Made by a program: the position numbers and the translations under genes. A stretch of DNA of 64,000 bases from Candidatus Gullanella endobia (GTDB lineage Bacteria > Pseudomonadota > Gammaproteobacteria > Enterobacterales > Enterobacteriaceae): assembly GCF_900048035.1 (NCBI RefSeq), contig NZ_LN999832.1, forward strand, positions 806,001 to 870,000, given 5' to 3'. Positions 1 to 41,586 of the stretch are shown here, piece after piece. Each line of letters starts with the position of its first letter. The stretch's first letter is position 1. The notes below the pieces were generated by a model. The model made no database searches. It was given only the letters and a program-made list of their open reading frames with translations, and was not told the origin of the DNA.

Positions 1-639
1 GTATAATACAGTAATAATTTCTATTATTTTATAAGAACTAATTTTAATTATTTAAAAATATATTTTGTAAATGTTTTATTGTATTTATTTTTAATAAGTA
101 TCTTTGTATTTATTAAAATACAGATAATAGACATAATTAATGATATATAAAGATATACAAAGATAGCAAGATATTAATATAGTAGTATTAATAATAGAGC
201 ATAGGAATATCAAACGATAAAAATTATATTTTTTAGAATTATTTTAATATAGTAATAGCTTACATTTTTTATTCTACTTAAAAAGTATTAAAAGAGTAGT
301 GATAATGTATATCTACAAGCTAATTCAAATTTATTTAGCATTAATATATAATAAGATTAATGTATATAGATAAATACTTTCCGCTTTTATTATTATAACT
401 ATCACTAATAGTATAGCTAATAATGAGGGAAATGCATAATTTTTTCTAATCAGGATTAGAATTTACCTACTAGTATATTTAAAGTTAGTGACGGTAATAA
501 ATTCTAGCTCTTTTCGCAATTATATCATTTTCTAGCACAAAATATTATTTCTTTATCAATTCTACCTATATCTATGATAAAATATTTAACTTCTGCTATT
601 TTTACGATCATAGTATGTATTTGTATCGAAAATATCCAT
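1..639. other. AT-rich gap, no gene recognised
   Basis: No open frame of useful length and no RNA gene is visible. By synteny this is where most of a decayed comM (yifB) would lie, because the next fossils are comM, maoP and hdfR in the E. coli order, but I could not align this part. Confidence 0.5.
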
Positions 640-760
640 AAAAAGATAAAGTAATACTAAAATTAATATCAGATTAACAGATAAAGACAGAATTAAGAGA
701 ATCTATTTGATAGTAGTATTCATTTATCATTATGTTAACCAGCTACTATAAAAATTGTAG
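640..760 (+). pseudogene. comM: comM (yifB) C-terminal remnant, tentative
   Basis: Translating the plus strand gives a stretch ending IKRIYLIVVFIYHYVNQLL, then a stop at 749-751. It is collinear with the C-terminal end of E. coli YifB/ComM (ITRQHLQEAVSYRAIDRLL), with I, R, L, Y and the final LL at the same spacing. ComM is a hexameric AAA+ helicase linked to branch migration in transformation. The call rests on this weak alignment plus synteny: in E. coli comM and maoP converge and hdfR follows, which is the arrangement here. No start or Walker motif was found upstream, so the gene is dead. Confidence 0.4.
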
Positions 761-816
761 TATTATGCTTGTGATAGACATTAGTAAAATAAAGAAAAAT
801 TATAACTACTTCTTTA

Positions 817-1156
817 TTAATCTTCAGTATCAGTATAGTCTTCCACTATATCCATCTGTGGTTTTCCGCCGGAAAGAGTATGAAAACGTTTAGGGCGGCG
901 AATATGCTCTATATATTTTAACCAAACTTTTTCATGCTCATTAGTCGGAGATAATTCACTATGACATACTGCAATAAACCGCCGCTCATCATTTGTTACT
1001 GGTTCACGCTTACCACTATCTAAATCATTATAAGCATGACCGTAACGCTCCAATAATTGCGCTTCCCGAATAGTAAAACAACCATGTCGAGAGAAGCCGT
1101 GAGGATAATTTTTGTTATCAAAATAACGATTAGTAGTAAAAAAAACTTTCCACCAT
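817..1156 (-). CDS. maoP: MaoP (YifE), macrodomain Ori protein, with a one-base frameshift in an A8 run
   Basis: MaoP organises the Ori macrodomain in E. coli together with the maoS site. The C-terminal 78 residues are open and very close to E. coli MaoP, including [25 protein letters not shown] and the EDYTDTED end. Upstream of the TTG at 1053 homology continues without a stop ([22 protein letters not shown]). The only start that fits family homology is ATG at 1154-1156 (MVESFF), and it lies one base out of frame because of eight A's at 1138-1145 on the plus strand. Removing one base gives exactly 112 codons, the E. coli length. The rest of the gene is clean while both neighbours are wrecked, so it may still be expressed through transcriptional slippage on the homopolymer. 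A sequencing or assembly error, or a very young pseudogene, would look the same. Confidence 0.75.
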
Positions 1157-1280
1157 TTTACATGATTCCATTTTTTATATAAAAGTTATATTACTTAATA
1201 ATTTATAGTATTAATTAGTTTTAATTTTCTGTAAAACAAAATATTTAAATCAATATGATAATTTTTTGAAGGCGTAGTTA

Positions 1281-2078
1281 GTAGATATAGAACTACTTAA
1301 ACGTTCTTAGAAGTAAATTATATACGACATTTTAGACGTGCAACAGAAGCGTTATATTTAACACAATCAGCAGTAAGTTTTTATCCTTTAGTTAGAAATA
1401 TAACTCAGCATCATCTTTTTTACTTATCATAGGAATAATATTCATTTAACGTCAGCAGACGAGAGACTTCTACGCCATGTAAAAAATGATATTAACATAG
1501 CAATTTGCTAAGCAAGAAGTAATATGCTTATCGCAATACAATCCGATATCTATCGGAGCTAATATTTTTCTATGGGAAGCATATCTAGGGATTGGTTAAA
1601 AATTTATTAATAATCGCTAAACATAAAATTAGAAAAACGTATTTCTCTACATAAAAAATTGATAAAAACTTCACGAATATTAATTCGATTTAATGATTAC
1701 TACTGAAGCGAAAAAATAGAAGAATTAGCAAGTTAACAACTGGATAGTTTTTCTCTAACACTCTTTATCGATACTAACTATGTATTAGTAAGCAAAAAAA
1801 ATCCCTATATTCAAATTAAATGGGAGATGATTTTTCATACATACAAAAGTATGTTAAAGTTAAATAAACAAATTCCGCTTTTTACTACTACCTCAGAGAA
1901 ATTAACACGTTAACTATTAAAGGTTAGTGCTGCTTATACTTTGCCTAGCTACTGGTAATATTTTTCAGATTTGCGATTTGTCAACGATGTGGTATAGATA
2001 GTTTGTCTACTTTATACAATTCGGTTAAGAAAAAAAATAGCATATGATAATCAGATACTCATTAAAGAATCTTTATAA
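1281..2078 (+). pseudogene. hdfR: hdfR (LysR-family regulator) pseudogene
   Basis: HdfR is a LysR-type regulator divergent from maoP in E. coli, as here. The plus strand reads DIELLK, then after a one-base loss near 1301, FLEVNYIRHFRRATEALYL and TQSAVSF. These match the HdfR helix-turn-helix region ([33 protein letters not shown] in the family, joined here in two frames). Later blocks are also collinear: RNNIHLTSADERLL, EKIEELAS, LTLFIDTNYVLVSKKNPYI, PLFTTTSEKLTR and a final ESL before TAA at 2076-2078. ATG has become GTA, and several stops and frameshifts interrupt the frame. The gene keeps roughly its full length, so decay is by point changes and small indels. Confidence 0.85.
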
Positions 2079-4519
2079 TATAACATTTATATTAAAGTTA
2101 TATATACTTTAATTAATCTTATTGATCATAATCTAAAATGGAATGCTTGCATAACTACTACTGAGATAGTATTCAATTATATGCTATTAACTACTATATT
2201 ATAAACCAATATGAGACATAATAAAAACATAAAATCTGATAATATTATTAGGAAACTTACAACATATGAATCCATATCGTACCATCATATTTTATATATG
2301 TTTATTATCATAGCGAATAACTTTTTTATTTATTATATAAATATAATAATGAAGGTATGTTCTCTATACGAAAACTAATCTCGAATGGTTAACATAAAAT
2401 ATGATTTTTTCTAAAAAAAGCTATAATTAATAATTTTAAGAAAACTACCGAAAATTTTATAAAATATGAAATATTACTAAAATAAAAGTAGCGAAATTGA
2501 ATAGATAAAATAAATATTTCCAGTAGGATAAAATAATCCTAGTAATTTTTCCTATTAAGAAGAAAAATTAATGATATCTTTAAGATAAAGTTTTTATGCT
2601 GTAATATCCCTAAATGATATTCACATTAATATTTAAAAATAAGCCAAAGTATGCTTAGTATAATGTTCTTTTAGTAATATTAGATATTATTAATGATATT
2701 GGATTATTCTGAATAAATTTCAGCGATAATTTTTTGTTCTTTCATTATTATCGGTATATTTAAAAATATGCTCTTTTATACTTGATACTAGTATTAATTC
2801 AAGTATTGATATTACTTTAATTTACTAAATAGATCTTAGAGTCGCTTATTTTAAGTACTATAATAACAAAACTTGAAAAAAGGAATGTTCTTATTATTTC
2901 TATTTAATGAAGTTATTCATTATTATTTTAATACTAGTAATATTAAAAATAAATTATTTTAATATTAAATTATTCTATAATATTTTATATGAAATTATTT
3001 TATAATTGAAAACGATTTTATCTTAAATTATACCTTACAGTTTTATTGAGTTATAGATTTTATTGATTATTTATTTTAATATCTATTAAAAATCAGATTT
3101 TGTTCTTGTTTTTGTTCTTTTTCTAGAAGTAATTACATAAGATATAAAGTAATAAACTAATATCTTATATTATAAATATAATAAAAATGAAATATTTTTG
3201 TTACGGTAATAATAACAATATATAATTGTAATAATATAAATTATATTATCAGTAAATAAATTATTAATTTAGCAAAAATATGAACAGTAATTTTAAAATC
3301 ATATAAATAAATAATTGATAATAAATTTTTAATTCTAAAAATTATTTTTAATGAATTAATATAAAAACAGAAAATATTTATAACAAATTATTATCTATTG
3401 CTTTTGTATTATAAATTTAATAGTGAATATTAATTACTACTAACAGAAAGTAATTGTTAATCTCATTAATATTAAAATATTTAATATCATTGTAGTTATA
3501 AACTATTAATCAATTATTTTAGATTGGAATAACGATATTTTATTCCTGTTAAAAAGTATAGTAACAAATATTACTAGCAATAATTTTTATATTTTATAAC
3601 ACGTTGAAATAAAGATTCTTCTAAATTTAATTAGAAATTTAAAAAAGATTATTGATATATTTTCTTTACTAAATCAACATATCGGAAAAATATAAGCATT
3701 ATTACATTTATAATTTCATACTCTTAATGATATTTTATAATTTTATTATTAATAATTTTTAAAAAGAGTTAGATCAGTAGATAGTTTTATAAACTAAATA
3801 TTTATAAAACATTATTTTCGATAATCTAAATTATTAGTTTAATAAAATAAACTATGGAAAAAATTAAATAGTTAACGATAGTAATCATAAAATTAGTTAT
3901 AATGTAATAGTTGTTTTAAAACTAATAATATAGAGAGATATATTGAGTAATAAAATATCATGACATATAATCAATATTTGATCAATAACGAATTCAGTAA
4001 AACAGAGTTATCTTTAAATTATTGTAAGTATTCAAAAAAAAATTAATATTTTCTCATTTCTTTATATTTCTTAGTTTATATTTTTATATTTTTTAAAATA
4101 GTTCGACTACTATCGATAATACTTCTATTAAATCTTATTATAATTAATCCGATATGACTAAATTTCATCTATATCGCTATTATATTTATATCTAGTCACT
4201 CATCTCTGTAACTAGATTTTAGATATTAAAACTAAAAGTATATCTAAAGTATCGAATTACAGTATGAACGGTGTTTTATTGCCTTTATAGCTATTCTATA
4301 TGCTAACATCTTCTTCAATTAAAGAAGAAATAAATTTATATCTTTTTATAAGAGCAATATAATTTTTAAAAAATAAAAAAATAAAATACAATAAATAATA
4401 AATTCTTTATTAAATCATTTAAAAGACTTCTTCATTAATTTAAAGTAATTTAAAAATATAATCTACATGAAAAGAATCTATTGATTTTAATAATATAAAA
4501 TAGACTAAACCAGTGTAAT

Positions 4520-4550
4520 AATAAGAAATTAGGGAGGCTGATTTCTTATT
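4520..4550. repeat. Inverted repeat, 10-bp stem with G-rich loop
   Basis: The arms 4520-4529 and 4541-4550 are perfectly complementary. The 11-base loop holds AGGGAGGCTG, the most G-rich run in several kilobases. A T-rich tract (AATTTTTATT) follows on the plus strand, as in an intrinsic terminator, but no gene is seen upstream. Confidence 0.6.
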
Positions 4551-4665
4551 AATTTTTATTTTAATTGTTACCATGTTATATATAGGTTATATTATAGATT
4601 ATTGTAAACGGTAATATTAATACTATATAAATAGTAATAACTTAATCTAGTTACCTATATTTGAT

Positions 4666-4706
4666 GTTTTATTAATACATCTTAGCATAAGATGTATTAA
4701 TAAAAC
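4666..4706. repeat. Perfect 19-bp hairpin, 3-base loop
   Basis: Arms 4666-4684 and 4688-4706 are exact reverse complements around GCA. The inner part of each arm contains ATACATC/GATGTAT, as does the separate hairpin at 25707-25743. No gene is nearby, so a terminator role for a surviving gene is not supported. Confidence 0.8.
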
Positions 4707-4780
4707 TATAGAAAGGTATATCATATTATAATTAGCAGTAATAAGAAAATAAAAGTTTAAAACTATCTGTTTTTGCTAAT

Positions 4781-4831
4781 AAAATAATAACTATTTGTCA
4801 TGATTAAAATCATAAAAATAGTTATTATTTT
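4781..4831. repeat. Interrupted hairpin, 16-bp outer and 5-bp inner stem
   Basis: Outer arms 4781-4796 and 4816-4831 are exact reverse complements. Inside them a 5-bp stem (4800-4804 with 4809-4813) closes on TAAA, leaving a small asymmetric internal loop. The shape is that of a structured RNA or an imperfectly corrected palindrome. No gene context explains it. Confidence 0.7.
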
Positions 4832-5399
4832 CTGATGAGTCATCGGAAAGCTTATGGATATAATTACATATACAAGATAATTTTTCGTCTAGTTCGTAGA
4901 ATATATCATAATGAATGCTAAAATTTATCTTAATAATAAAATTTTTCTGATTAAAAATCAGTAGAGTGAATAATCTACTATTTATATATACATAGTTTAA
5001 TAAAATTGTACTAAATTCTTATTATGACTTAGCGTTTATTAATATAATTAATATAACCTAAAATGATAATAAATAAAATCAATAATAATACTTAAATAAG
5101 TATTTAGTTATTTTTGTGTCTTTAAATACAGAATATTTATTAGGTTCAATGTTTTTATTGAATAGTTCATTTAATATTATAAATCTTAATTATAATTCGG
5201 ATATTTATATTATCGAATAATAACCTAAATCAAGCTATAAAAAGAAACTAATGAAAAATAACTTATTTTACCGCTAGTAAGCTAAAAATATAAAATCGGT
5301 GATGTCAATATTTTAAAATGATTTTATAACTAATATACTTATATTGCGATTCTATATGAAGATAATATTATAAATAACTATTTTTAATTAGTTTAGTAT

Positions 5400-5437
5400 A
5401 ATTACTTATGATAAAATATGCTTTATCATAAGTAATT
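5400..5437. repeat. Perfect 16-bp hairpin with following T run
   Basis: Arms 5400-5415 and 5422-5437 pair perfectly around ATATGC, and the plus strand continues TTTAG. It resembles a terminator for a gene reading rightwards, but no such gene remains. Confidence 0.7.
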
Positions 5438-7509
5438 TTTAGTCCAAAAGGATTAGTATCTATATTTCAAACTTATTTTTTCGATAATATGCGATATATA
5501 CAATTAATTTAATTGATAATGTACTGGTTGTTAACATAATGACTATATATTATAGATATCAAAATTTCTATAATGCGTTCATTATGATCAGAAAAAATAA
5601 ATCCTAATTAAGATCTTTTTGTATTAAATTATTCAGAAGTAATAATATCGATTTAAGTCGATATTATCTTAATTAATTTTTTCGATATACAATCTAGTTA
5701 AAAATACTTATCAGTTTTAATCTTATTACTAATTTTTAGATAAACTCTCGTATAACCAAATTTCATCGTCTCCCTAATAATGTTACAATAATGTAATAAA
5801 ATAACTAGGTATAATTAAAAATAATCGATATCTATACTTTAATTGTAATTAAGTAGTAATAGACGGAATAATCTATATTTAATCTAATTTATATAAAGCA
5901 ATTTTTTCTTTTATATAATAATTTTCATATTATTATTCTTTCATCTCGCTTGTGTAGTGTATTTATTGTTACTACTATAGATTTTATTTTTTTATTTTAT
6001 ATTAATCTTATTAAAAATCATCCATGCGGTATTTATAATATAAAATAATATAGCATTAATAGTATATTTTATAAATAATCTTATATTCTATTAATAAATA
6101 TTTAAAAATCTTATGTTGATATTAATTATTTATTAAAAAGTTGATGTATGTTTATTATTGTTTCTTTCATTTTGACAAATGGTTAAGATTAATAAATTGA
6201 TAATAAAAACATAAAATAATTACTTTATCTTTTTAAAATCTGAGAATACTGTTTTGATAAACAATCTATTGCAAAATTTTATTGGAAACTCTGAAAAAAT
6301 TAAAAATATTTTTTGTTAAATTAAAAAGTTTAAATTAAAGTATGTTATTATATATGAATCAATAAATAATTATAGGGGGTGAATCTATAAAAATTGAAGT
6401 ATAAATATTATAGTTATGCAGCAAACAATTTGATTGTGTATACCATTTAGGCTCTAATAAAATACATTATAAATATTACTACTATAGTATAGTATAAAAA
6501 ATAAAATCAAAAAATCGTATTCGACTGAAGTGCAACTACTAGGAAATAGTACGTTGATACTTTATATATAAAGTAATTAATTTCAGCTAAAAATACAGTT
6601 TATAACTTAATTAATTCAATTATAAATTAATAAAATTTTAATAAATTTAAACAAATAAGTTTTCTATCTAAATAAATGATATGAAATGAATAGTAATACT
6701 AATAATGCTATTATATAAAATACTGCTTTTTAAATTTTTCGTCGGTTTTTGGATATATATAGAATATATGTAGTGTATGTAAGCACAATAAAACTTATCA
6801 TAACCTAGATAAAAGAGCAGTAATAAATAGTTTTTGTAATAAATATAAATTTTTAGTTTTAACTAGCATTAAAAATTGGAGAATACATTAATTTTAATAC
6901 TAGAATGAAAATATTAAATAAATAATAAAATAATAATAAAGTAGAAAATAAAACCATCGTAGTAATGAAAATTACTATTTAATAATTAAATAAATTCATT
7001 AGTATATTACTAACAATAAAACCTATAAATACAAATAACGACTCTAATAAATAGAATACATTATAATAGTACTATTTTATTACTGATAAATTTAAATTTA
7101 AATCAATGCATTATATTTATCAAAATCATTGTTATTATCAGAACTAAAGTAGTTCGATATTAATCGATAATAAAAGTTATATCATTTTATGCTTTTATCA
7201 CTAATTAGTGTGGTTTATTAAAATAAAATAGAAAATAATATAATAAATACTAAAAATCAGGATAGATTATATTTAGTTTTCGAGAAAACAAACTTCAATG
7301 CTATTGATATAAATCAATAGTTAATGTATGAGTAAAGAAAATTTAGAGATAATTATAAATAATTAAATTAAATTATGTATAATATTACATTATTAATTAA
7401 TAAATATCCATTTCATTGTTATAAAATCCTGTTTCATTCATAATGAAGTTATTAATGTAACGTAACTATAAACACTATAATCGAGAAATAAAATTAAAAG
7501 ATATAACAC

Positions 7510-7589
7510 TTTAGAAAAAATATAAAAATAAAGATCGTTTTACGTTAAGTTTTAAATACTATAGATTTAAAACTTAACGTAAAACGATC
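7510..7589 (-). terminator. Very long terminator-like hairpin at the lpxL stop codon
   Basis: Arms 7533-7557 and 7565-7589 form a perfect 25-bp stem with a 7-base loop. The lpxL stop codon (7588-7590) overlaps the proximal end of the stem. Reading on the minus strand, the stem is followed by a T-rich tract (rc of 7513-7532, TTTATTTTTATATTTTTTCT). This is what an intrinsic terminator for lpxL should look like, although the stem is unusually long and AT-rich. Confidence 0.75.
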
Positions 7590-8511
7590 AATGGTACAAG
7601 GAGGGTGCTCCTGGCGGTCGAGTTTTAAAACGTCGATGCAACCACATATACTGATCTGGCGCCAGAAGTATCGCTTGTTCTACTATTTTATTTATATAGC
7701 TAGCAACAGCAATTTCGCTATCTAATGGCATATTGCGTTCATTAGATAAAATCAATAACTCATATCCGCGTCCCTGAGGTAAACGACGCGGCATAAATGG
7801 AATTACAGCTGGTTTAGCTATTTTAACTAGAATATAAGTACCGATAGTAGTTGCAACCTGTGGAACAGCAAACAGCGGAGCGAATACGCTACTTTTAGGA
7901 CCATAGTCATGATCTGGCGCATACCAAATAATATCACCATTTTTTAAAGCACGAATCATACCTTTAATATTCGATCTATCCAACATAGATTTATTGGATC
8001 GCATACGTCCCCAAGTTTGTAACCAATCCAACAATGGTTTATTATTAGGTCGGTAAACACCGATACCTGGGTTATACATACCAAAAATACGTGCTCCTAA
8101 TTCAAGGGTGAGAAAATGCATGCCAATAAGCAAAATTCCTTTATTTTCTGCACGCGCATCAGCGATATGCTCTAGACCTCTGACAGAGATCCAGGGCTTA
8201 ATACGCCAGTCAGGCCAAAACCAAGCAATACCAGTTTCAATAAGCCCCATGCCAACTGATTCAAAATTCTGCTGTAATAATATTTCACGTTCCATTTCCG
8301 ACATCTCAGGAAAACATAATTGTAAATTACGACGTGCGATTGTTTTCCTGTAGTGCATAAAACGCATTGCAATCCTTCCTAGACGGGTACCTAGCGCGTA
8401 AAGCAAAGGATAAGGTAACAGTACTAATAAATAGAGTACTCCAATACCTAGCCAAGTAATCCAATTACGTGGATACAGAAAAGAACGATTAAAAGCAGGA
8501 AGTGTGGTCAT
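7588..8511 (-). CDS. lpxL: Lipid A lauroyl acyltransferase LpxL (HtrB)
   Basis: LpxL transfers laurate from acyl-ACP to Kdo2-lipid IVA at the inner membrane, a late step of lipid A synthesis. The 307 residues match E. coli LpxL (306) along the whole length. An N-terminal hydrophobic helix lies at about residues 17-40. The HxxxxE acyltransferase motif appears as HFLTLE near residue 132, and [17 protein letters not shown] and [11 protein letters not shown] are family blocks. The end, [13 protein letters not shown], is also diagnostic. As in E. coli, trhO lies upstream in the divergent direction. A GC-rich hairpin (ACGGGTAAACCCGT, 8532-8545) sits in its leader. Its survival, with lpxC also in the window, indicates that the symbiont still builds acylated lipid A. 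Confidence 0.96.
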
Positions 8512-9748
8512 GACGTCTCAAATATAAACATGACGGGTAAACCCGTATCTTCAGTTGTACTGTTAATAATTTATAATATTCTGACATTTTTCTATGGTGT
8601 AAAAACCTCTCTCCATGAGAATTATTAGCCTAATTGAATATTTTTTGTAATTAAAGATGAGTAGCAATATTATTATAGAAATAATCTTTTTATTTCAAGA
8701 TATTATATAGTCAATATTGTTTTTGTCTTTTTTAGAATTTATTTTATTAACCTATATTAGTATTAGACAGGAATTATATATCGTACTATAGATTAGCACG
8801 ATGGCATCTACATCATTATTTTCTTCTATTTTAGTTTTGTTATTATTTTTTCTGAAAGTTTCATAATTACTATTTCTTTCGTATCCGTCTAACGGAAAAT
8901 ATCTAATAACTAATGTCTAAGTTGATTTAGCATGTTAGTAATAAGCTATAGCTTAAATACAAGAGCATAATTGTATTATTTATTTTAATTTGAAAATAAA
9001 AATAATGTAATAGATAACTATAGAAATCGTGCAGTTTGATAAGATAAAGTAAATACTTTATGTGTATCAATTTGTAATAGCAAACTGATATTTGAGCATT
9101 GCTATTTTTTATAAAAATAGCAATCTATTTCCTATGAAAGGATAAACAATAAATGTAGCGAATATGTTCACAAATTGCATTATTTCGTAGTAATAGACTG
9201 ATAAAAAACTATGTTAACTTGTTAATTTATTTTTTCTAGATAAACATTGACTATAACTAGAATTTATCGAAATTAAAAATAAGATATATATTATCTAGTT
9301 CCACTTTTATTTTATGCAATTACTCTAATCGCCTAATAAATTTATATCTTATATTGAGATGAAAGCTAAGCTTAAGAAAAAATTAATAGCGTTTCATAAA
9401 CTCTCTTTTTTTAAGGAAAATATTATTCCATTAAAGAAGTTGAAAACAATAATAATATAGTTTTTAATCTGAAGATTGCTTAAACTTCTAAAGAGAAACG
9501 ATTTATTAGGAATAATTTTATCTATAAACAGCTTATTAAGAGGAAAAAATCAGAAACCAATACCGCTTTGAGATAAGAGTAATTGTTTTATAGAATAAAA
9601 CCACTCTGTTGCCTTAGCATAATCATATATAGATTAATTTAAAAATTAATTTGTTCTGACAATTTATTATAAATTTAATAAAAATACAATCTGACGACAT
9701 AATTGTATATTACAGCAATAATTTAACTGTAAACAGGAATATAAAACT
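8512..9748. other. AT-rich divergent gap between lpxL and trhO
   Basis: About 1.2 kb with no open frame I recognise; in E. coli the same genes are much closer. It must hold promoters for both genes, but none could be chosen with confidence. A GC-rich inverted repeat ACGGGTAAACCCGT lies at 8532-8545 near lpxL, and a 12-bp hairpin lies at 9098-9124. Confidence 0.5.
9098..9124. repeat. 12-bp perfect hairpin
   Basis: Arms 9098-9109 and 9113-9124 (ATTGCTATTTTT and its complement) pair around TAT. It lies mid-gap between two divergent genes, so it terminates neither. Confidence 0.6.
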
Positions 9749-10729
9749 ATGCCAGTTTTGCATAATAAAATCTCAAACTATAAATTACGGACGAGTATGT
9801 TATCTGAAAGTGAACCCCGTATTACTATTTCGTTTTACCGCTATTTTATTTTAAATAATCCACATAAGTTCCGTGATAATCTTTATCGTATTTTCAATAC
9901 GCTGCAAATTTTTGGTCGCATTTATATTGCATCAGAAGGTATTAATGCACAAATTAGTGTACCTAAAAAACATTTTAATAAATTTCGTAAAACATTATAT
10001 ACCTTACATCCTCAATTGAATGGATTACGGTTAAATATTGCCTTAGAAGATAATGGAAAATCTTTTTGGGTATTACGTATGAAAGTTAGGCCACGCATTA
10101 TCGCTGATGGTATTAATGATTCTACTTTTAATCCAAGTGATGTTGGTCATTATTTGAAAGCAGAATTGGTTAACGCTATGGCAGACGATCCAAAAGTATT
10201 GTTTGTTGATATGCGAAATCACTATGAGTACGAAGTAGGACATTTTAATCAAGCTATTGAGATACCCTCTAATACGTTTCGAGAACAACTGTCTATGGTT
10301 ATAAAAATATTGTGGCACAATAAAGATAAAAAAATTGTGATATATTGTACTGGTGGAATTCGTTGTGAAAAAGCAAGTGCTTGGATGCGACATAATGGTT
10401 TCAAAAATATCTATCAAGTAGAAGGCGGTATTATTGAATACGTACGTCGCGCAAGAGAAAAAGCTTTACCATTAAAATTTATTGGTAAAAATTTTGTCTT
10501 TGATGAACGTTTAGGCGAACGGATTACTCCAGATATTATAGCTTACTGCCATCAATGCGGTAAGCCCTGTGATAGTCACACCAATTGCCAAAATCAGAAT
10601 TGCAACCTATTATTTATTCAATGTCACATTTGTAATGAACGTTATATAGGTTGTTGTAGCATAACTTGTCAAGAAAAGCAATCACTTCCGCTTCTACATG
10701 CACTAAAAAATAGTAAAGAAATGATATAA
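9749..10729 (+). CDS. trhO: tRNA uridine(34) hydroxylase TrhO (YceA), rhodanese family
   Basis: TrhO makes 5-hydroxyuridine at wobble position 34 of tRNAs using oxygen. The 326 residues match E. coli YceA (350) from [14 protein letters not shown] onwards. The N-terminal part carries [18 protein letters not shown]. The central rhodanese domain has [14 protein letters not shown] and the active-site loop [13 protein letters not shown] near residue 200. A cysteine-rich C-terminal segment ([14 protein letters not shown] and CCSITCQE) is intact. The poorly conserved last residues of the E. coli protein are missing, a likely harmless trim. It lies next to divergent lpxL as in E. coli. Confidence 0.95.
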
Positions 10730-11180
10730 AAATTTTTAACAAATCTAGTGCACTTTTATAAAAATGTTAACAAAGATAGTGCTCTTATTAAGAATTGATA
10801 ATATTATCTCGAATATATACTGACAACAATTTTTTATTCTAAATTATATTATCTTATTATTAATATCAAAAATCTTGATAATACACTGGTGTAAATTTAC
10901 GCTGATATAACGTAACTATCGTTTAATAGATTGCTTCAAAAATACTATAATCGGAAAACTATTAAAAATAACAGAAAAAATTAAATTTTTATAATTGAAT
11001 AGTAGTAAAACGTTATGTTCTAATAGAGTTAATATTGTACATGCTATTATTATATAATTAATCATGATAATCGTTACGACTAAAAATCCAATGAATAAAA
11101 TATAGCAATGCTTTATTTATCAGAAATTTTTATAAAAAGTATAAAATGCAGTTATTTCAATACATACTTTGGTACATGAA
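10730..11180. other. Gap between convergent trhO and rne, with an imperfect direct repeat
   Basis: In E. coli a large flagellar and metabolic block separates these genes; here it is gone. An imperfect direct repeat of about 30 bases (TTAACAAATCTAGTGC and TTAACAAAGATAGTGC) lies at 10736-10795 just after trhO. I see no remnant gene. Confidence 0.5.
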
Positions 11181-11200
11181 TAAAATCCGCCTTAAGCGGG
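11176..11200 (-). terminator. Intrinsic terminator of rne
   Basis: On the minus strand, 20 bases after the rne stop, a short GC stem CCGC-TTAAG-GCGG (11187-11199) is followed by ATTTTATT. It is one of very few GC-rich stems outside genes in this window and is correctly placed for rne. Confidence 0.65.
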
Positions 11201-11221
11201 TCTAAGATAAGAACAAAGAAT

Positions 11222-14200
11222 TTACGATGGATATAATATGTCATTAGGACGTGTTACTGCTGCATTCGCTTGGGTTTTTGCAGTATGAGCACCAGCGGCG
11301 CCACGACCCTCGAAGAGGTAGTTTTGTCGTTGCCAATTGCTGATCGGTATAACTGAAGATGATATATAATGTGGTGAAGATACTTTAGTTACCGGTGCAT
11401 TGGCATGATTCTTAAATCGTGTAGTAAAAATTTTTAAACTTTCCGGTAAAGATCCTTCTTCTTTTGCTAAAAGTATGCTAGTAGTAGGCAAAATATGACG
11501 TACGGCTTCTTTTGGTTCGGTAATAGATGTAGTCTTTCCAATAACAAAAAACTCACTATCTGTTGATGGTATCGCTTGAGGGAGTGTGGTATCATAAGGC
11601 AATGCAACATCTGACGTGATAATAGTATTTTCTATTTTCTTAGAATATTGCATCTCTTTTATAATAGTAGATTCAACCTTTTCTGATATTGAACTAACAG
11701 AATATTTATCACCACCTGCTACTACAGACTGAGATAATATCATATTACTTTTATGGATGGGATTTCGTAGAGGTGTGCTATCCGGCATGGAAAACGATTT
11801 TTTTAGCTGTACGTTTTTTTGTTCTAGTTGCTCAGTAATAGTGGAATAGCTAACTAACTCTTTATTCGTAGTTATCTCAGATGACAAAAGCGAATAATGT
11901 TCATTGCGGTAACGACTACGGCGCTGACTGCTTACGCGTAGATGACGTGGAGAACGTCGTGAATGGCGCATTAGATTTGCTTGGTTATTATTGTGTCCAA
12001 TATCAGTATTATCAGAATTAAGCATAATATTATGCTGTAGAATTTTATTCTCATCATTACTGTTCTGATTTTCAATTACCGTATTAAATGTATCGGTATT
12101 GCTTTCCATAGTAGTAGTTATCCTTTTAACAAAAGGATCAGATTGATTATGAACTCGTATTTTACGGTTTAATGTACGATAGTGACGACGCGATGACTGA
12201 ACTTGAATCGGTTTATTATTCTCATTAAAACTATTTCTATAGTTTGATTTTATTATGTTTTCAGTAGATTGATCTTTAAATCCTTCTTGATATTGATTTT
12301 GATGATCTTGGTTAAACATACGGTATGATTTAGTTTGGTCTTCTTGTGATTCTTTTTCAAAAATATCATTTGCATTTTCTTTTATAGCAAAGGTTTTAGA
12401 ATGTTTTTGATACAGATCATTACAATCGTTTTGACGCTGAATATTATCTTGATTAGTATGATTTGGTTTGATATTTCTATTATAGTGGTTATCTTGCTTA
12501 CTTTGACCGCATTGATTTTGCTGCTCTTGAAATTGTGGCTTTCCAATCTTACCTTGCGTTTCAACGACCACTGTATTGGCAGAGTTAATCTCCTGCTGTG
12601 GTATTAGTGTATTAATAATAGATTTAAATCCATCTAAAAAACAGGCAAATATTTTTCTTGAAACGCTAGTATTTGTCACGTTCACAGCATGCGTCACTTG
12701 CACACCATTCGAATTAATTACAGTTTTTTTCTCACTAACTACTGATGAATTTGGCATTAGAAATGCTGACAGCGCTGGCTGTCCAAAGTTTTTTCGCTCG
12801 GAAGCGTACTCTTCTTGCGGTTGAGTCATTTCTGCTTCATGTAACTGCGGCAAAAGATAGCTTAAGGTAGGAGCTACTTCTCCTTTTCGTACACGTAATA
12901 CTACATAATGCGGAGTTTGCATTTGATCATTTGGTACAATGATAGCTCGAACACCACCTTGACGTTTTTCGATTGTATTAACAGCTTCGCGTTTTTCGTT
13001 AAGCAAATAAGAGGCAATAGGCACAGGTACGATAGCATGTACTTCATGAGTATTATCTTTTAAAGCTTCTTCTTCAATAAGACGCAATATGGAAAGGGAA
13101 AGAGATTCATTATCACGAATAGTTCCAGTACCACTGCAGCGAGGACAAACATGATGACTTGATTCACACAGCGATGGACTAAGACGCTGACGAGAAACCT
13201 CCAATAGACCAAAACGAGAAATACGTCCGATTTGAATACGAGCACGATCTTGACGGACTAATTCACGCAGACAATTTTCTACTTCGCGTTGATGACGCGA
13301 AGTAGTCATATCGATAAAATCAATAACAATTAAACCACCTAGATCGCGCAAACGTAGCTGACGAGCGATCTCATCCGCCGCTTCTAGATTGGTATTGAAA
13401 GCAGTTTCTTCAATATCACCACAACGAGTTGAACGCGCAGAATTAATATCAATAGCAGTCAACGCTTCAGTCGTATCGATAATAATTGAGCCACCAGATG
13501 GTAATCGTACTTCACGCTGAAAAGCAGATTCAATCTGTGATTCAATCTGGTAATGACTAAATAAAGGAACTTCTCCACTATAAGACTTAATTTTATTAGT
13601 AAAATCAGGGCGACCCAATGAAGCAATATGCTCCTTTGCTAAATCTAGCACCTTGGGATTATCGATCAATATTTCACCTATATCAGGCCGTAAATAATCG
13701 CGGAAGGCACGAACAATAACATTACTTTCCTGATGTATCAAAAATGGCGCTGGACGACCTTCAGCGGCCTTTTTGATCGCTTGCCAATGCTTGAGACGGA
13801 AAGTTAGATCCCATTGCAGTGCATCAACCGATTTTCCAACGCCGGCAGTTCTGACAATTAGTCCCATGCCATCAGGAAGTTCAAGAGAAGATAGAGTCTC
13901 TTTCAGTTCAGTACGATCATCACCTTCGATACGGCGTGATATACCACCAGCACGTGGATTATTTGGCATTAATACTAGATAACTTCCAGCTAGACTGATA
14001 AATGTGGTCAATGCTGCGCCTTTATTTCCACGTTCCTCTTTATCAACCTGTACGATAACCTCCTGACCTTCGCGTAACACATCCTTAATATTAGGTTTAC
14101 TATGAGTAGAATATTGAGAAGGAAAATACTCACGAGAAATTTCCTTAAGTGGAAGAAAACCATGGCGGTCAGCGCTATAATTTACAAACGCTGCTTCCAA

Positions 14201-16030: not shown

Positions 16031-16699
16031 AGATTACTTACATATATTAAGAAATAAGAGTATTTCAAAGCATGTAGAAATATACAATACAGATTTTTAT
16101 CTGGATTTGAAAAAGTTCTCTATCTATTAATATTAAATATCATCGTAGATCGGTATAGAGCATTATATACTTCTTATATACTTCTTACTTCTACTACTAA
16201 GAGTAGTTATACCAACCAATAATATTTTTGTAAGTAAAGTGGTTTTTCATGCGAAATTACTTTCCGATATGGAGTATTAATTATTGCTAATAATTAGATA
16301 CTATGGATAACACAACAGTAAGCTAGTTCTAACTATTCGCGATAATTTATATATTAACGTATTATTTACAATAGTTTTTATCTGGTAAGTAATATTTTAT
16401 AGATATCTTTTTATAAAAATTAAACAGCATGATTAATTTTTATAAAAAGATAATAATTTCAATAAAAAAGAACAATAAAACTATTTTATAAATTATTTGA
16501 TTATCTAAAAAATTATAAAATATGTTGTTATACTATCAAATATTTATTATTAAGATTATGAATATAATTAAAATCTCTATAGAACAATTTTTTTCTTTGA
16601 CCTTCCCTTGTTAAAAAGTTAACATATGTTCTTTATATTAAGTAATATATTTCGACGCATAAAGAGAGAAGATTACTCCTATTTATTTTAAGTTTAGAT
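16031..16699. other. AT-rich gap in the yceF/yceD fossil region
   Basis: No intact frame. By synteny it should hold the rest of yceF on the minus strand and the start of yceD on the plus strand, but I cannot align it. It contains the 20-bp hairpin at 16404-16452. Confidence 0.4.
16404..16452. repeat. Perfect 20-bp hairpin, 9-base loop
   Basis: Arms 16404-16423 and 16433-16452 are exact reverse complements around ACAGCATGA. It lies inside DNA that by synteny was once coding (yceF or yceD), so it probably formed after those genes died. Confidence 0.8.
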
Positions 16700-31110: not shown

Positions 31111-31492
31111 TATAGTTACAATGATAATATTAAAGTACTACTTTAGTTATTAAAGTAATATTTAAAGATTTTAATAATAGCAACGATTATATATCAATAT
31201 AATCAGTAGTTTAATATAGTATTTAATAAATATTAAGCTATTTATAAAAACTAGGATACATCATTATAAATATGTTTTTTTAATATAAAATATAAAATTA
31301 TTCAATTTTTCAATAATTCTATTTGTTAGAATCACTTTTAATTTCCTTATAGTATTAAGTGAAAAACTTCACTGCTTTATTTTTCTCGTTATAGGAAATT
31401 CTATATTTAGAATTATCATTCTAAATATAGAAATAGAATTCTATAAAACCAGATTAGCTAGTAATATATGCTCTCATTTATTCTATAGAAGT
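31111..31492. other. Gap between purB fossil and lolE, with a 15-bp hairpin
   Basis: Arms 31399-31413 and 31418-31432 are exact complements around TATC, about 60 bases beyond the lolE stop on the minus strand. No T run follows in the lolE direction, so a terminator role is only possible. The rest probably holds the unreadable end of purB. Confidence 0.5.
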
Positions 31493-39345: not shown

Positions 39346-39383
39346 AACTGTATTAGTAATAATACGAAATTACTAATACAGTT
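39346..39383 (-). repeat. Perfect 15-bp hairpin overlapping the ndh stop codon
   Basis: Arms 39346-39360 and 39369-39383 are exact complements with an 8-base loop. The ndh stop (39373-39375) lies inside the arm, so the last ndh codons are part of the palindrome, as at lpxL. No T run follows on the minus strand; GGTAGGTCCGG comes next. It may act as a 3'-end stabiliser rather than a terminator. Confidence 0.7.
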
Positions 39384-41547: not shown

Positions 41548-41586
41548 ATCTAATTTTATATTTTAAAATAAAATATAAAATTAGAT
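41548..41586. repeat. Perfect 17-bp hairpin
   Basis: Arms 41548-41564 and 41570-41586 are exact complements around AAAAT. It is almost pure A/T, so chance is less remote than for the mixed ones, but the length is still striking. Confidence 0.65.

What the first reader, a model, noticed from the sequence alone, without database searches (positions are those of the whole stretch)
7533..7590. 25-bp perfect hairpin fused to the lpxL stop codon
The stem starts at the stop codon and is followed by a T-rich tract in the lpxL direction, so it looks like a terminator. Its length is well beyond usual intrinsic terminators and it is perfectly paired although AT-rich. It may compensate for low GC content by length.
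Basis: seen in the sequence. Interest (0 to 1): 0.5.

Follow-up and report, generated by a model that had tools for sequence, protein, structure and literature searches.

The report
Perfect hairpin ending the lpxL gene
A perfect 25-base-pair hairpin sits right at the end of a lipid A gene in an insect-symbiont-like genome, where it probably helps end the gene's message; it is one of many such perfect hairpins in this genome, which look like products of replication slipping onto its own new strand rather than of design.

Summary
The hairpin is real: arms 7533-7557 and 7565-7589, 25 of 25 pairs, 7-nt loop. It shares two bases of the lpxL stop codon and is followed, in the lpxL direction, by 16 T in 20 nt. 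It is single-copy and matches no Rfam family. Placement and T-run fit an intrinsic terminator, by far the most stable among 137 gene ends scanned. 'Length compensates for low GC' is not supported. Long perfect hairpins occur across the half of the genome examined (42 stems of 15 bp or more in 464 kb; controls 0-0.2), mostly away from gene ends and without T-runs. Stems of 18 or more pairs are more often perfect than near-perfect, and a murF hairpin is 18/18 here but 11/18 in the closest relative, which points to replication template switching. Best reading: a template-switch hairpin beside a T-run, probably working as the lpxL terminator. Termination, and this origin at this exact site, are inferred. 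Loss of nucleases that restrain fold-back copying is suggestive but does not predict hairpin density across 23 genomes.

The parts
7588..8511 (-). lpxL-like gene (Kdo2-lipid IVA acyltransferase, 307 aa), stop TGA at 7588-7590
   Evidence: ORF list; NCBIfam NF005340 497 bits (cut-off 398), TIGR02207 466 bits (cut-off 298)
7565..7589 (-). 5' arm of the hairpin in lpxL sense; shares 7588-7589 with the stop codon
7558..7564 (-). 7-nt loop
7533..7557 (-). 3' arm of the hairpin in lpxL sense
7513..7532 (-). T-run directly after the stem in lpxL sense, 16 T of 20
   Evidence: 0.05% of sampled non-coding 20-mers as T-rich
4666..4706 (.). another perfect hairpin of the same population, 19 bp, not near an ORF of 100 codons
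5400..5437 (.). perfect hairpin, 16 bp
16404..16452 (.). perfect hairpin, 20 bp, 9-nt loop
25707..25743 (.). perfect hairpin, 15 bp
31399..31432 (.). perfect hairpin, 15 bp, 60 nt after a lolE-type ORF, 5 T of 12 behind it
39346..39383 (.). perfect hairpin, 15 bp
41548..41586 (.). perfect hairpin, 18 bp

Best explanation
The feature is one member of a population of long perfect inverted repeats, spread over this genome, that arise or are kept perfect by replication template switching: a nascent strand folds back on itself at an imperfect or short inverted repeat, copies its own arm and returns to the template. This one lies between the lpxL stop codon and a T-run, so the lpxL transcript would end in a 25-bp hairpin followed by a U-rich tract. 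It most likely acts as an intrinsic terminator, and as a 3' block against exonucleases, for lpxL. Shown: the structure, its placement and orientation, the excess of perfect stems, their preference for perfection, and one case of arm homogenisation in a coding gene. Inferred: that template switching made this particular hairpin, and that RNA polymerase stops here.
For: 90 perfect stems of 12 bp or more in 464 kb against about 3 in Markov controls, and 42 of 15 bp or more against 0-0.2. Stems with at least 18 pairs: 19 with no mismatch and 5, 2, 5 with 1, 2, 3 mismatches; controls 0, 0.2, 0.4, 1.0, so perfection itself is favoured. murF: 18/18 in this genome, 11/18 and 10/18 in the two nearest relatives, 4-10/18 in the other six of eight examined. 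This parallels the lpxL layout. For termination: rank of the T-run, fold energy, and -29.6 kcal/mol against -8.7 for the next of 137 gene ends.
Against: No genome of the same genus was among the relatives offered, and records very near the window may be left out, so the state before the hairpin cannot be read at lpxL. The Sodalis-clade loci with a stem-loop at this place have unrelated GC-rich sequence and no T-run. Loss of nucleases that restrain template switching does not predict hairpin density over 23 genomes (ExoI test p = 0.86; G005 has lost four kinds and shows no stem of 15 bp or more in 100 kb). Per non-coding base G007 (48 per 100 kb) and G013 (22) exceed this genome (16.5), so it is not extreme on that measure. 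Most hairpins here have no T-run, so the coincidence at lpxL could be luck. In the ssb case a stretch between stop and loop also lacks a counterpart in G064, so more than one event is needed. Only 464 of 938 kb were examined.
Confidence: 0.55

Rival explanations
1. A mutational by-product with no role in termination: the hairpin happens to lie at the lpxL stop and next to a T-run by chance, and lpxL transcripts end elsewhere or by Rho.
For: 52 of 63 perfect stems of 13 bp or more lie away from ORF 3' ends and hairpin flanks as a whole are not T-rich; hairpins with only 5 and 3 T of 12 behind them also follow rpsL and rpsG (genes); an intact Rho gene is present; about 6.5 kb without an ORF of 60 codons lies downstream, so read-through may cost little.
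Against: A tail with 16 T of 20 is found in 0.05% of sampled non-coding 20-mers, and it lies on the one side and strand where a terminator needs it.
Confidence: 0.25
2. A terminator lengthened by selection to make up for weak A-U pairs.
For: Position, orientation, T-run; in the compact AT-rich genome G007, 6 of 10 perfect stems of 14 bp or more lie within 150 nt behind an ORF, three of these between convergent ORFs; here 8 hairpins lie in the 80-nt zones behind ORFs against 3.3 expected, p = 0.017; terminator-like stems behind lpxL can be long elsewhere too (about 17 bp in L124).
Against: Only 6 of 137 gene ends gave a terminator-like match, hardly more than shuffles (2.1) or the reverse complement (5), and the other five stems have 6-11 pairs; most long perfect hairpins are not at gene ends.
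Confidence: 0.13
3. An RNase III processing or mRNA-stability element, or a ribosome-release brake, rather than a terminator: 25 bp is just over two helical turns and the stem shares the stop codon.
For: An RNase III gene without internal stops is present; stem length and overlap with the stop codon are seen in the sequence. That helices of this length are RNase III substrates is recalled.
Against: The T-run is not needed for this role; nothing comparable stands at this place in the related symbionts examined.
Confidence: 0.04
4. An assembly or amplification artefact (fold-back chimera).
For: Chimeric by-products of strand-displacement amplification are described in a paper seen only in the listing (PMC9484634).
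Against: 62 of 63 perfect stems of 13 bp or more are not inside ORFs although ORFs cover 46% of the sequence, which random chimeras would not give; the murF hairpin keeps the reading frame and a conserved protein. Read data were not available.
Confidence: 0.03

Closest known systems
Intrinsic (Rho-independent) transcription terminator
   Same: Stem-loop right after a stop codon followed by a T-run in the gene's direction; a simple scan finds such a structure after lpxL in 32 of 80 named relatives.
   Different: 25 bp, against 5-13 bp in that scan and about 17 bp in the longest one folded (L124); 6 G-C pairs in 25; the stem shares the stop codon; 3' end not mapped.
Template-switch (quasipalindrome-correction) hairpins; PMC8794818 (abstract and one section read), PMC7202029 (passages), van Noort 2003 (seen only as cited in PMC6649704)
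   Same: Perfect arms, more perfect than near-perfect stems, homogenised arms in murF.
   Different: Ancestral state at lpxL unknown; density per base is the highest of 23 genomes sampled (9.1 per 100 kb, next 8.0) but not per non-coding base.
Coding palindromes in Nematomorpha mitochondria, PMC6649704 (start of abstract in listings and passages read)
   Same: Many long perfect inverted repeats in a reduced genome; template switching proposed there as a mechanism.
   Different: Those lie in coding sequence and reach 284 bp; here 62 of 63 are not inside an ORF of 100 codons or more.
REP/MITE-type repeated palindromes
   Same: Intergenic palindrome next to a gene end.
   Different: Single copy in the genome.

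Membership tests
Intrinsic terminator | Stable stem-loop just 3' of the gene | tested here: met
   25/25 pairs, -30.8 kcal/mol, bottom five pairs with three G-C
Intrinsic terminator | U-rich tract directly after the stem on the sense strand | tested here: met
   7 T of the first 8, 16 of 20
Intrinsic terminator | G+C-rich stem | tested here: not met
   6 of 25 pairs are G-C; stability comes from length
Intrinsic terminator | Transcripts end in the U-tract | not testable with these tools
   no RNA data
Intrinsic terminator | Element kept in related symbionts (supporting, not strictly defining) | tested here: not met
   nothing comparable with a T-run in L113-L117, L176, L004, L005; the scan gives none for L113-L116 and L176 and only a 5-bp match for L117
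Template-switch hairpin | Arms exactly reverse-complementary, and stems more often perfect than near-perfect across the genome | tested here: met
   19 perfect against 12 with 1-3 mismatches at 18 or more pairs; 464 of 938 kb examined
Template-switch hairpin | Ancestor with one arm or an imperfect palindrome at the same site | tested here: inconclusive
   met for murF and, in another genome, supported for ssb; for lpxL the relatives are too far
Template-switch hairpin | Density follows loss of ExoI (expectation, not strictly defining) | tested here: not met
   23 genomes, Mann-Whitney p = 0.86
REP/MITE repeat | Several copies in the genome | tested here: not met
   only the locus itself, on both strands
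Known structured RNA | Match to an Rfam family | tested here: not met
   0 matches at gathering threshold in 4000-12000

The most novel reading that the evidence does not exclude
In this reduced genome the nucleases that cut or abort fold-back DNA are all gone or broken: SbcC and SbcD and ExoVII were not found, and ExoI and RecB are left as fragments with internal stops. Template switching has become a major source of new structure: it turns weak palindromes into long perfect hairpins across the non-coding DNA, and where one forms between a stop codon and a T-run it founds a new terminator in one step, as at lpxL.
Probability: 0.25. Interest if true: 0.6.

Novelty: new member of a known kind. 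Interest (0 to 1): 0.4.

Why it matters
Terminators and other RNA hairpins are usually assumed to be built by slow selection on paired bases. This genome offers dozens of perfect hairpins, most of them away from gene ends and without T-runs, and one that sits where a terminator is needed. It is a natural setting in which to test whether template switching can supply regulatory hairpins ready-made. It also warns against reading long perfect hairpins in such genomes as designed terminators.

Tried and rejected
Rejected: a repeated mobile palindrome (single copy); a known RNA family; a conserved lpxL 3' element of the Sodalis group (stem-loops in L113, L004 and L005 have unrelated sequence and no T-run; L115, L116 and L176 have nothing comparable); a general rule that gene ends of this genome carry long terminators (that scan takes only unbroken stems of 6 or more pairs with loops of 3-9 and 6 T in 8, so interrupted terminators would be missed).

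Tried without success: linking hairpin density to loss of repair genes. Of the 16 genomes of 2.0 Mb or less among the 60 searched, none has an SbcD match over the cut-off (G043 and G056 have weak ones), whether or not they have hairpins; G060-G063 were not searched for SbcCD. ExoI status does not separate hairpin-rich from hairpin-poor genomes (p = 0.86 over 23; p = 0.96 among those under 40% GC); G004, G026 and G062 were counted as having ExoI although their matches hold one in-frame stop. A RecB match over the cut-off is found in 20 of 23 genomes, not in this one, G005 or G058; G005, which also lacks SbcCD, ExoVII and ExoI, shows no stem of 15 bp or more. RecA status does not separate them either, judged by eye. 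The samples of the other 22 genomes are 100 kb each, and the contrast of 9.1 here with 8.0 in G007 rests on 42 and 8 hairpins.

A 2023 survey (PMC10434271; abstract and passages) reports that genomes with many inverted repeats are more often endosymbiotic.

Recalled, from no call: that ExoI and ExoVII restrain quasipalindrome mutation in E. coli (a title on ExoI stands in the reference list of PMC6357072, whose passages also discuss RecBCD); that SbcCD cuts hairpin DNA; that model NF008746 (PRK11779) is ExoI; that rpsL and rpsG share an operon; that a 938,041-bp mealybug symbiont may be Candidatus Gullanella endobia (taxonomy entry only; identity not tested).

Full report
At 7533-7589 two 25-base arms are exact reverse complements around a 7-base loop. 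The gene before it, on the minus strand, is an lpxL-type acyltransferase whose TGA lies at 7588-7590, so the stem shares two of its three bases. In the sense of the gene the stem is followed by TTTATTTTTATATTTTTTCT. As RNA the element folds at -30.8 kcal/mol, z -10.1, with none of 200 shuffles as good; as DNA at -23.8. The sequence occurs once in the genome, and the region 4000-12000 matches no Rfam family.

Is the long perfect stem special to this gene end? I took 20 spread-out 20-kb stretches of the same 938-kb genome and, with the window, searched 464 kb for perfect stems with loops of 3-12. There are 90 of 12 bp or more, against about 3 in trinucleotide-Markov controls whose longest was 14, and 42 of 15 bp or more against 0 to 0.2. 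The lpxL stem is the second longest (the longest is 28). Of the 63 with 13 bp or more, 1 lies inside an ORF of at least 100 codons, 10 near the 3' end of one, and 52 elsewhere. Of the 62 centred in non-coding DNA, 8 lie in the 80 nt behind ORFs against 3.3 expected, p = 0.017. The flanks of all 63 hold 4.60 T per 12 nt, background 4.67. As a class they do not look like terminators. ORFs here are mechanical calls covering 46% of the sequence, so some 'elsewhere' hairpins may lie in pseudogenes or short genes.

The lpxL hairpin still differs from the class in its tail: 16 T in 20 nt, found in 0.05% of sampled non-coding 20-mers. A scan of 137 gene ends (ORFs of 150 codons or more with 100 nt free behind them) for an unbroken stem plus T-run gave 6 hits (2.1 in shuffles, 5 on the reverse complement). 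lpxL was at -29.6 kcal/mol and the next at -8.7. By that scan the genome has few recognisable intrinsic terminators, and lpxL has by far the strongest. Rho and RNase III are encoded.

How do such stems become perfect? With at least 18 pairs, 19 stems have no mismatch and 5, 2 and 5 have one, two and three; controls give 0, 0.2, 0.4 and 1.0. Random origin followed by decay, or slow selection on RNA pairing, should leave many near-perfect stems; copying one arm from the other leaves perfect ones (inference). A direct case is murF, where a hairpin lies inside the reading frame. The two arms pair 18/18 here, 11/18 and 10/18 in the two closest relatives, and 4 to 10 of 18 in the other six; in the closest, only 2 of 1200 other positions in the gene pair as well. 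An existing imperfect palindrome was made perfect. A second hairpin that begins at a stop codon stands behind alaS.

A telling case came from another genome. In G018 a 79-bp perfect hairpin consists of the end of ssb, with its stop codon and the sequence behind it, and an inverted copy. In G064, of the same genus, the T-run that in G018 lies behind the hairpin stands 6 nt after the ssb stop, and there is no inverted copy. Insertion by fold-back copying is the simplest reading. Deletion in G064 is not excluded, and the stretch between stop and loop in G018 has no counterpart in G064 either, so more than one event is needed. The resulting layout (stop codon within the stem, T-run behind) resembles that of lpxL.

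At lpxL itself the ancestral state is not known. Sodalis-clade loci L113, L004 and L005 carry a GC-rich stem-loop shortly after the stop, with unrelated sequence and no T-run; the reduced symbionts L115, L116 and L176 have nothing comparable, and L117 at most a weak 5-bp match. Of 80 named relatives, 32 have a terminator-like structure behind lpxL by a simple scan; the longest stem I saw folded has about 17 bp (L124). The ORF downstream in L004 and L113, on the same strand (it reads like an MFS transporter; no family search was run on it), has no counterpart as an ORF here: none of 60 codons or more lies between 1053 and lpxL.

Among 23 genomes sampled (464 kb here, 100 kb each elsewhere) this one has the highest density of stems of 15 bp or more, 9.1 per 100 kb; G007, G013, G018 and G029 follow at 8, 7, 5 and 4, while ten small genomes (G005, G006, G008, G010, G030, G033, G060-G063) have one or none, seven of them none. 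Per non-coding base G007 (48 per 100 kb) and G013 (22) are higher than this genome (16.5). SbcC, SbcD and ExoVII were not found, and ExoI and RecB are left as fragments with internal stops. That fits what is known of E. coli (PMC6357072 passages; otherwise recalled), but it does not predict density across genomes: ExoI test p = 0.86, and G005, with the same losses, has no stem of 15 bp or more. The cause of the excess is open.

Verdict: a true hairpin far beyond chance; probably the lpxL terminator; its length and perfection are best explained by a mutational process acting across the genome, not by compensation for low GC. Papers: PMC8794818 (abstract and one section), PMC7202029 (passages), PMC6357072 and PMC6649704 (passages), PMC10434271 (abstract and passages); others were seen only in search listings.

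Noticed in passing
L220:15864-16027 (genome G018, C1:490001-510000): 79-bp perfect hairpin that duplicates the end of ssb in inverted orientation; the genus-mate G064 lacks it. A likely case of fold-back template switching.
   Followed up: partly
L051:7175-7221: 18-bp perfect hairpin inside the reading frame of murF; an imperfect palindrome in the two closest of eight relatives.
   Followed up: yes
L041:5826-5856: 14-bp perfect hairpin that begins at the alaS stop codon, a second hairpin fused to a stop codon.
   Followed up: partly
L034:9649-9677 and 10195-10235: Perfect hairpins of 13 and 19 bp behind rpsL and rpsG (one operon in E. coli, recalled), with 5 and 3 T in the 12 nt behind them.
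   Followed up: no
G000:C1:320459-321338 and 87859-90081: Remnants of ExoI (sbcB) and RecB with internal stops in a genome that keeps an intact recA.
   Followed up: partly
window 1054-7532: About 6.5 kb without an ORF of 60 codons or more, 20-21% G+C over 1-8000, holding further perfect hairpins.
   Followed up: no
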